Part shown: one piece after another, positions 824 through 4,618 of the stretch
Position numbering within the stretch: position 1 is the first letter of the stretch
Layout of the letters: every line of letters begins with the position of its first letter
From: a virus
IMG/VR virus record: IMGVR_UViG_3300028712_000010
Span: 1 to 30,420 of that record
Length of the DNA: 30,420 bases
Direction: 5' to 3' (one strand)
Notes under the pieces: model-generated
Seen by the model: the letters and a program-made list of their open reading frames with translations, nothing else
Databases searched by the model: none
What the model was told of the DNA's origin: nothing
Program-made: the position numbers and the translations under genes

Positions 824-892
824 CCAACCTTTTTCCCGGTTACCTATGTGTGTGTGTGTGTGCGCGCGAAAGAGATATCTACAAAAGGTTGG
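824..892. repeat. 10-bp inverted repeat around TG/CG tract
   Basis: CCAACCTTTT (824-833) is matched by AAAAGGTTGG (883-892), enclosing about 49 bases. Extra GGTTGG hexamers occur just beyond the right arm and again near 937 and 1047-1076. In RNA or single-stranded DNA this gives a stem with a large loop. Confidence 0.6.
847..868. repeat. (TG)8(CG)3 alternating tract
   Basis: Eight TG dinucleotides (847-862) run straight into CGCGCG (863-868), giving 22 bases of strictly alternating pyrimidine-purine, a sequence class known to adopt Z-DNA readily. It lies in the loop of the 824-892 inverted repeat, in the non-coding gap below the primase gene. Confidence 0.8.
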
Positions 893-3180: not shown

Positions 3181-3208
3181 GGGCGAGCGACCTTTCGGTC
3201 GCCCGCCC
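3181..3208 (-). terminator. GC hairpin with GAAA tetraloop closing array 1
   Basis: Two 12-base arms (3181-3192 and 3197-3208) enclose four bases. Read leftward the loop is GAAA, a stable GNRA tetraloop, and the single imperfect position becomes a G-U pair, so all 12 positions pair in leftward RNA. Read rightward the same position is an A-C mismatch and the loop is UUUC. The structure therefore favours leftward RNA. The following bases (TGTTGCATT) are only moderately U-rich, so it may be a terminator, a stabilising 3' end or a processing boundary. Confidence 0.7.
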
Positions 3209-3527
3209 TGCCCGAGCCTGCCGTGCCGTGACGTGCCTTGCCGAGCCCCGCCACGACGTGCGATGCCACGCCACGCCTCGCCTGCCGTGCCTTGCCGTGC
3301 CACACCGTGCCGAGCTGAGCGCTGCCGGGCCGCGCCGAGCCGAGCCGTGCCTCGCCCTGCCTCGCCTGCCGTGCCTTGCCGAGCGCTGCCATGCCACGCC
3401 ACACGCCGCCGCACCGTGCCTTGCGGAGCCATGCCGAGCCACACCTGCCGTGCCTTGCCGCGCCGCGCCCCGCCTTGCCAAGCCGTGCGCAGCCGAGCCC
3501 TGCCGGGCCTTGCCGGGCCTGCCGTGG
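3209..3527 (-). repeat. Degenerate GGCNN pentamer array 1 (3' UTR or small RNA)
   Basis: On the leftward strand about 60 consecutive pentamers of the form GGCNN start directly after the TAA of the 142-aa gene and run into the GAAA-loop hairpin. The pentamer phase changes by one base only where the 9-mer CACGGCAGG occurs. Its complement lies at 3518-3526, 3444-3452, 3365-3373, 3281-3289 and 3217-3225, giving spacings of 74, 79, 84 and 64 bases, each 5n-1. The composition nearly lacks stop codons, so several frames on both strands are open, but none has a ribosome-binding site or a non-repetitive product. It is most likely non-coding RNA or a DNA element; function unknown. A second copy with the same start and orientation logic lies at 7039-7124. 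Confidence 0.85.
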
Positions 3528-3956
3528 TTAGCTGGCGGCGGCGTACGAGCCGTCGATGATGTCGCCGAACTCGCTCAGGTGCTCCCACTTGCGGCGGAAC
3601 GCCTTCCACTCGCGCTCGCACTGCCGCAACAGCTCGGCCCGATCGACAGGATCGGCCAGCACGGTCTCGACTGGCTTGTAGCCGTGCGCGCCCTCATTGC
3701 TGGCCGTGGTGAGGTTCACGAAGGCGGGCACCTTGCGTTCCGCGCCGTCGGGGTCGGTCTTGTAGACGACCTTCACGCTGCGGATCAGCCGCCGAGCGAC
3801 CTCCTCGCGGTACCGTTCGGCCGCTTCGGCGTCGTCCCAGGGCAGGAACTCGTGCAACGGTGAACCCGGCGGGCGACCCTCCTCGACCACGATCTGGGGT
3901 GTCAGCTCTCCTCGCCGGTTGTAGATGTCCTGCAGCAGCTCACGAAGGTCGCTCAT
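3528..3956 (-). CDS. Conserved actinophage protein, unknown (142 aa)
   Basis: ATG 3956 overlaps the TGA of the upstream gene (ATGA), so the two are translationally coupled. The product has an N-terminal QDIYNRRGELTPQIVVEEGR segment, then PWDDAEAAERYREEVARRLI, a strand-rich middle (SVKVVYKTDPDG, KVPAFVNLTT) and a helical C-terminal part with conserved-looking Trp and Tyr residues (EREWKAFRRKWEHLSEF). From memory, proteins with this pattern are recurrent in actinobacterial phages and prophages, often next to the partner encoded upstream; I know of no assigned function. The pentamer array begins immediately after its stop codon. It may act with the upstream protein and the array RNA, but that is inference. 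Confidence 0.75.
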   Translation of the reverse strand: MSDLRELLQDIYNRRGELTPQIVVEEGRPPGSPLHEFLPWDDAEAAERYREEVARRLIRSVKVVYKTDPDGAERKVPAFVNLTTASNEGAHGYKPVETVLADPVDRAELLRQCEREWKAFRRKWEHLSEFGDIIDGSYAAAS

Positions 3957-4618
3957 GACCGCACCTCCACGTTCTTGGTCAGGTCGATCTTGTAGGTGCC
4001 GTAGTCGCCCTTGCGCTCAGGACGCCACTCGCCGACCCCGACTCCCATGCCCCCGGCGTCGATCAACGAGAGCAGCGACTCCAGCGTCAGCGACGACTTC
4101 ACGAAGGTCACCTCCAGTACCGCCGACCACTCGTTGAAGAGCGGACGGTAGCGGAGATCGTGCCCGCTGCCGACACCCACGACCGCCTCGAACATCTGCG
4201 GGCTGCCCTCGATCCTGGTCAGCAGCTGACCGTCCTCGGCCGGTTCCCCGGCGAAGAACATCATCTGCCGCAGGCTGGTCATGGTGACCTTCTTGTCGTA
4301 GTACCTCGCGCCGCCGATGGTGGCCTGCTTGAACGCCACCGAGGGCACGCCGAAGCCGCCGTCGCTCTTGAGCCGGTAGAACGCCGCCTCGTACTCGGCG
4401 TCGGGGTTCTTCGCCGACCGCATGGTCGAGCGTCCCTGCATCGCGTCGAGCATCGCCTTCTTGGCCTTCTCCGGGAAGCGGTTCACGATCAGCGGGGCTG
4501 TGCCGATGATCGGAACCAGTGCCGTCTCGGCGGCGACCCGCTCGATCTGCATCGGGGCGTCCTTGCCGCCTCCGGTCGGTTCTTCAGGTGGGGGTGTTCC
4601 TTTCGGTGCAGTCGTCAT
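3953..4618 (-). CDS. Conserved phage protein with RAMP/Cas7-like glycine loop
   Basis: ATG 4618 is preferred to longer forms because GGAAGG lies eight bases upstream and the extension is Arg-rich shadow sequence. After a Pro/Gly-rich linker of about 20 residues the 221-aa product has ETALVPIIGTAPLIVNRF, a Lys-rich EKAKKAMLDAMQGR segment, GVPSVAFKQATIG and the strand pattern RYRPLFNEWSAVLEVTF. It ends with GGMGVGVGEWRPERKGDYG. A small ferredoxin-like domain ending in such a glycine-rich loop resembles RAMP/Cas7-type RNA-binding folds; a single-strand annealing protein is another reading. Both are inference from motif shape. The family is common in phages without a known role. It sits between a small helical protein and the 142-aa partner, with the array downstream. 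Confidence 0.75.
   Translation of the reverse strand: MTTAPKGTPPPEEPTGGGKDAPMQIERVAAETALVPIIGTAPLIVNRFPEKAKKAMLDAMQGRSTMRSAKNPDAEYEAAFYRLKSDGGFGVPSVAFKQATIGGARYYDKKVTMTSLRQMMFFAGEPAEDGQLLTRIEGSPQMFEAVVGVGSGHDLRYRPLFNEWSAVLEVTFVKSSLTLESLLSLIDAGGMGVGVGEWRPERKGDYGTYKIDLTKNVEVRS

What the first reader, a model, noticed from the sequence alone, without database searches (positions are those of the whole stretch)
3181..3527. Non-coding GGCNN pentamer array ending in a strand-specific GNRA hairpin
About 60 GGCNN pentamers fill the space between the stop of a conserved unknown gene and a 12-bp hairpin. The hairpin is perfect only when transcribed leftward (G-U versus A-C; GAAA versus UUUC loop), so the leftward RNA is probably the functional form. 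The array has no supported gene, no spacers and no known role. It could be a stable 3'-end RNA, a decoy or guide for the upstream RAMP-like protein, or a recombination or annealing substrate.
Basis: partly seen in the sequence, partly recalled or inferred. Interest (0 to 1): 0.87.

Follow-up and report, generated by a model that had tools for sequence, protein, structure and literature searches.

The report
VIPR guide-RNA array in a phage
The odd GGCNN repeats are the guide-RNA array of a VIPR system, a CRISPR-like weapon described in a 2026 preprint that phages use against rival phages, and one of the guides read here perfectly matches a gene of another phage.

Summary
The array is real, non-coding and far beyond chance. 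The window also holds a second, unreported array on the other strand (7046-7113). Scanning phage contigs for the bare DNA pattern brought up 120 loci, and 84 carry a relative of the window's "RAMP-like" gene. Arrays lie on the sense strand, usually just after a stop codon. In sister mycobacteriophages GGC is conserved while NN is close to saturated. The gene is homologous to the solved SUSP1 Vipr protein (profile E 3e-42), and its model matches CRISPR RAMPs. This is therefore a VIPR system as described in bioRxiv 2026.04.26.720920, in which a Vipr RAMP uses GGY/NN vrRNAs to find double-stranded DNA through the NN pairs with a 1-nt skip. Array 1 parses into four guides separated by GGCA "slips" and a repeated handle. 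Guide 3 matches 28 of 28 NN bases under the 1-nt-skip rule in a tail gene of another phage contig, with skips on wobble positions: independent evidence that the published code applies here. New member of a known kind. The slip punctuation and the arrays without a vipr gene in the target phage may be new details. Expression and repression are untested.

The parts
3953..4618 (-). vipr: RAMP-like protein of 199-221 aa (two possible ATG starts), phrog_4652
   Evidence: Profile of the family hits PDB 36pp 'SUSP1 Vipr protein', E 3e-42; AlphaFold2 pLDDT 95.9 and Foldseek best hits all CRISPR RAMPs; SUSP1 gene hits the family HMM at 2.4e-49
3528..3956 (-). candidate accessory gene (vap), 142 aa, phrog_15946, 'family B'
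   Evidence: Next to vipr or its array in many loci; overlaps vipr by 4 nt; confident model but no PDB fold match; not the family of SUSP1 vap1
3205..3524 (-). array 1: multi-guide vrRNA array, GGYNN units, sense with vipr/vap
3460..3519 (-). guide 1: CC AA CC AG TC TG AC TT AA GG GC GC
   Evidence: Parse; no exact target found
3381..3445 (-). guide 2: GT TC AT TC AA AC GC GG GT GT AT AG TC
   Evidence: Parse; no exact target found
3297..3366 (-). guide 3: GA AG GA AC TC TC GC CC AG TC TC AC GT AC; matches a tail gene of contig IMGVR_UViG_3300043313_001888
   Evidence: 28/28 NN bases with 1-nt skip, 0 mismatches
3219..3282 (-). guide 4: GA GT GT AT AC GT GG TC AA AC; 3' limit uncertain
   Evidence: Parse; imperfect codon-phased similarity to the start of another tail gene of the same contig, 16/20; no exact target
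3446..3459 (-). handle copy 1, GGCAAGGCACGGCA, ending in the 4-nt slip GGCA
3367..3380 (-). handle copy 2, GGCAAGGCACGGCA
3283..3296 (-). handle copy 3, GGCAAGGCACGGCA
3181..3208 (-). terminal hairpin, 12-13 bp with GAAA loop (likely 3' tail or end of the array transcript)
7041..7117 (+). array 2: apparent single vrRNA, opened by ACGGCA slip; GT GA AA CA GT CA GC TT CG GA AC GG TC AT
7115..7162 (+). hairpin after array 2 (about 18 bp, loop TCAC)

Best explanation
The array encodes VIPR RNAs (vrRNAs), the guide RNAs of a phage-encoded VIPR system. The gene just upstream encodes Vipr, a small RAMP related to the Cas7/Csm3 fold. Vipr subunits are expected to line up on the RNA, one per GGY triplet, so that each exposed NN pair reads DNA. 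Target DNA is recognised as NN-x-NN-x-NN, with one base skipped between pairs, and binding would block transcription of a competing phage. Shown here: the gene family, array anatomy, strand, GGY conservation with NN turnover, and a perfect natural target for guide 3. Inferred from the preprint: transcription and processing into single guides, RNP assembly, DNA binding and repression.
For: Homology to the solved Vipr: profile E 3e-42; SUSP1 vipr scores 2.4e-49 with my family HMM. Model pLDDT 95.9, top Foldseek hits all CRISPR RAMPs. Linkage: 84 of 120 loci fetched by DNA pattern alone carry the gene; 5 of 5 Vipr homologues picked by protein have an array on the same strand. In 114 of 127 arrays the upstream gene is on the same strand. 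Cheoctovirus pair Quico/Donkeykong: GGC 5/132, NN 42/81, flanks 11/276 mismatched. Deviant triplets are mainly GGT, 182/422, fitting the published GGY. Units between slips peak at 8-13; the preprint gives 9-16 repeats per vrRNA (PMC13142463). Guide 3: of three 18-base core hits, one extends to 28/28 bases, in a phage tail gene with skips on codon position 3.
Against: No transcript or binding data for this phage. Only one of five guides has an exact target; scans of cores of the other four found none, although they required exact 18-20-base matches in a partial collection. A small search among the fetched loci did not by itself distinguish the skip rules. The accessory protein is not of SUSP1's vap1 family. 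The tails lack a shared sequence and the published pseudoknot was not tested.
Confidence: 0.95

Rival explanations
1. The array is a 3'-UTR protein-binding or sponge RNA: a TRAP-like oligomer binds GGY triplets two bases apart, and the NN bases carry no information.
For: Triplet plus 2-nt spacer resembles TRAP target layout (own knowledge); the array is sense and near stop codons; GGY conserved.
Against: It predicts no NN-coded targets, yet guide 3 matches 28/28 bases under exactly the published skip rule. It does not predict guide-length segmentation by slips.
Confidence: 0.03
2. Recombination or annealing tract at a module boundary, with repeats maintained by slippage.
For: Array length differs between near-identical phages, mostly by multiples of about 5 nt; some relatives lack it.
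Against: Slippage would copy NN: neighbouring NN are identical 249 times against 264 expected by chance. Strand bias and linkage to one gene family are unexplained.
Confidence: 0.01
3. A real protein is encoded across the array, as annotated in several mycobacteriophages and Gordonia phages.
For: Arrays are stop-poor; some records annotate ORFs there.
Against: Annotation is inconsistent between near-identical phages (none in Brocalys, Quico or Saal). Only 77 of 177 sense frames of long arrays are open. The substitution pattern has period 5, not 3.
Confidence: 0.01

Closest known systems
VIPR of Escherichia phage SUSP1 (type II; bioRxiv 2026.04.26.720920, PMC13142463; PDB 36pp)
   Same: Homologous Vipr RAMP; GGY/NN RNA in the intergenic space; small accessory gene beside vipr; 1-nt-skip targeting of a competing element
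   Different: SUSP1 has separate ~100-nt vrRNAs each with its own tail, mostly GGT, and vap1 of family C. Here four guides run on in one array separated by GGCA slips and a handle, mostly GGC, one terminal hairpin, accessory family B, and a further array in another operon
VIPR 'staggered arrays with overlapping vrRNAs' (named in the preprint, fig. S18)
   Same: May be the same architecture: contiguous guides in one array
   Different: The figure is in a supplement that could not be read, so identity is not established
Class 1 CRISPR-Cas (Cas7/Csm3 RAMP filament on crRNA)
   Same: RAMP fold; guide RNA with a handle; periodic unpaired positions
   Different: No direct-repeat/spacer array; guide bases lie two by two between fixed GGY; the genes tested beside the array matched no Cas family; phage-encoded
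TRAP RNA-binding sites (NAGNN repeats)
   Same: Triplet plus 2-nt spacing in RNA (own knowledge)
   Different: No guide function, no RAMP; used only as an early working idea

Membership tests
VIPR | vipr gene encoding a RAMP homologue (RRM core, G-loop) | tested here: met
   G-rich motif AGxxxGxGDxRP...G nearly invariant
VIPR | Intergenic RNA of alternating GGY/NN beside vipr | tested here: met
   (as DNA; transcription not observed)
VIPR | GGY conserved, NN hypervariable | tested here: met
   Homologous arrays of Cheoctovirus phages
VIPR | About 9-16 repeats per vrRNA | tested here: met
   Window guides of about 10-14 units; slip-to-slip spacing peaks at 8-13 units across loci
VIPR | NN pairs specify DNA with a 1-nt skip | tested here: met
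   Guide 3, 28/28 bases; one guide of five
VIPR | Skip base on codon wobble position in coding targets | tested here: met
   (guide 3 site)
VIPR | Accessory vap gene | tested here: inconclusive
VIPR | Conserved structured 3' tail | tested here: inconclusive
   Both arrays end in strong hairpins, with no common sequence; pseudoknot not tested
VIPR | vrRNA expressed, bound by Vipr, represses target | not testable with these tools
   Needs bench work
VIPR | Assignment to one of seven types | not testable with these tools
   Type definitions lie in supplementary files
CRISPR array | Identical direct repeats separated by unique contiguous spacers | tested here: not met
   5-nt units; the only repeated element is a 14-nt handle
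Intrinsic terminator (hairpin 3181-3208) | Stem followed by a U-run | tested here: not met
   Leftward RNA continues ...CGCCCUGUUGC, no U-run

The most novel reading that the evidence does not exclude
Beyond being a VIPR, this phage group uses a punctuated multi-guide array: 4-nt GGCA slips plus a short handle mark guide boundaries. Guides are also placed away from vipr, in other operons of the same phage and in phages with no vipr at all, which would then borrow a rival's Vipr. The targeted phage has two such arrays, one ending in nearly the same handle, and no vipr found in the 37.5-kb contig.
Probability: 0.4. Interest if true: 0.75.

Novelty: new member of a known kind. Interest (0 to 1): 0.62.

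Why it matters
VIPR is a newly described RNA-guided DNA recognition system with a non-contiguous code, proposed as an ancestor of CRISPR. This window gives an actinobacterial-type example whose guides can be read by eye. It independently supports the 1-nt-skip code with a perfect natural target in another phage, shows GGY conserved and NN turning over between sister phages of M. smegmatis, and suggests a rule (GGCA slips) for cutting long arrays into guides. It also shows that 'hypothetical genes' in several mycobacteriophage and Gordonia phage records lie in guide arrays, so the system can be tested in ordinary laboratory phages.

Tried and rejected
Rfam: no hit. RNA folding of the array is no better than shuffles (z -0.36 leftward, +2.65 rightward), so it is not a structured RNA apart from the hairpin. 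Literature searches by repeat pattern gave nothing; the preprint was found only after the PDB hit. TRAP-like sponge, two-layer G-quadruplex, Rho exclusion, recombination tract and coding-repeat ideas were considered and dropped once the Vipr homology and the target were found. Bacterial-genome scan: GGCNN runs there are mostly simple identical repeats (20 of 138 NN-diverse, against 205 of 225 in phages). Cores of guides 1, 2, 4 and of array 2: no exact target in IMG/VR. Target search within about 2 Mb of fetched loci was too small to tell skip rules apart. Vipr in 346 Actinomycetota genomes by single-sequence search: none (uninformative). Two further core hits of guide 3 (L266, L268) do not extend and are taken as chance. 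Family B fold: no PDB match.

Full report
Observation. The finding is accurate in its main points. On the minus strand 3205-3519 holds 51 GGC triplets in 5-nt register. The best chance score in 60 resampled windows is about a tenth of that observed, and the reversed pattern gives no match. The array begins 8 nt after the stop of the 142-aa gene and ends in the 3181-3208 hairpin with a GAAA loop, well paired only as leftward RNA. The two arrays lie on opposite strands but each is sense to the gene before it.

A phage-wide pattern. Of the arrays in the viral loci, 205 of 225 have varied NN. In bacterial genomes the same kind of pattern is mostly simple repeats, with only 20 of 138 varied. Control triplets in the same loci give 4 chains each against 234. 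With a home-made gene finder, the gene on the 5' side is on the array's strand in 114 of 127 arrays, often within about 20 nt of the stop codon, and locus GC runs from 39 to 76%.

Selection. Near-identical Cheoctovirus phages of M. smegmatis have homologous arrays between near-identical flanks. Quico against Donkeykong: 5 of 132 GGC bases differ, 42 of 81 NN bases, 11 of 276 flank bases. So GGC is held fixed while NN turns over. Deviant triplets are mostly GGT; 4-nt units are GGCA in 172 of 189 cases. Neighbouring NN are identical about as often as chance predicts, so the array is not grown by simple slippage.

Gene linkage. Genes beside arrays fall into few families. One, to which the window's RAMP-like gene belongs, is present in 84 of the 120 loci fetched by DNA pattern alone, usually next to the array. 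In reverse, five phages chosen only because they encode the protein (Pipp, ODay, Cy-LDV1, Trine, LESphi2) all have arrays on the same strand. The 142-aa gene is a second recurrent family, 'B'.

Identity. The family profile hits PDB 36pp, 'SUSP1 Vipr protein', at E 3e-42. The AlphaFold2 model (pLDDT 95.9) has CRISPR RAMPs (Csm3, Cas7, Cmr) as best fold matches. The preprint (PMC13142463) describes VIPR: Vipr plus vrRNAs of alternating GGY/NN that read double-stranded DNA as NN with one base skipped, aimed at competing phages. As a control, SUSP1's own vipr hits my family HMM at 2.4e-49, and GGY arrays are found beside it.

Reading this array. GGCA slips and the handle GGCAAGGCACGGCA cut array 1 into four guides. 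Across loci the number of units between slips peaks at 8-13, close to the published 9-16 repeats. Array 2 opens with the same ACGGCA slip.

A natural target. A nine-unit core of guide 3 searched with 1-nt skips gave three phage contigs. In one, IMGVR_UViG_3300043313_001888, the match extends to all 14 units, 28 of 28 bases with no mismatch, and stops where the handle begins. The five units outside the searched core match 10 of 10 bases (chance 4^-10 for each hit). The site is in a tail-protein gene and the skipped bases are codon third positions. The two phages share a superinfection-exclusion lipoprotein gene (77% identity over 337 nt), which suggests, but does not show, a shared host. Guide 4 has an imperfect, codon-phased resemblance to the start of another tail gene there (16 of 20 bases), too weak to claim.

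What differs from the published type II example. The window has a contiguous multi-guide array, mostly GGC, and accessory family B instead of SUSP1's vap1 (which is my family C, E 1.9e-18). Family B has a confident model with no PDB match. The preprint mentions staggered arrays and seven types; its supplement was not available, so I cannot say whether this architecture or accessory is already listed. The target contig itself carries two arrays but no detectable vipr, a hint that guides may work with a Vipr encoded elsewhere; the contig may be incomplete.

Limits. Nothing here shows transcription, processing or repression. Four of five guides have no exact target in the collection searched.

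Noticed in passing
L270 16395-16559 (-); contig IMGVR_UViG_3300043313_001888 32906-32963 (-): The phage targeted by guide 3 carries two GGCNN arrays of its own, each followed by a hairpin with a UCCG loop; the first ends with almost the same handle as window array 1, yet no Vipr was found in the 37.5-kb contig.
   Followed up: partly
window 6349-6807 (+) and L270 18124-18669 (-): Superinfection-exclusion lipoprotein (Lipoprotein_Ltp) gene shared by the window phage and the phage its guide 3 targets, 77% nucleotide identity over 337 nt.
   Followed up: partly
L131 3938-4324; L255 824-1012; L130 3986-4309; L272 2611-2880: Annotated hypothetical genes (Donkeykong gp48, Zizzle gp53, UmaThurman gp40, Pipp gp43) lie inside GGCNN arrays and are probably spurious.
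   Followed up: partly
L276 1581-1883 (+): Pseudomonas phage LESphi2 has three separate GGY tracts, each followed by apparent stem-loop sequence, between a sigma-factor-annotated gene and its Vipr homologue.
   Followed up: no
window 841-890: Run of TG repeats (tgtgtgtgtgtg) in an AT-rich gap near the primase gene.
   Followed up: no
L263, L264 (Firehouse51, Squirty): Close relatives keep the gene upstream of the Cheoctovirus array, or part of it, but lack the array, with other genes in its place.
   Followed up: partly
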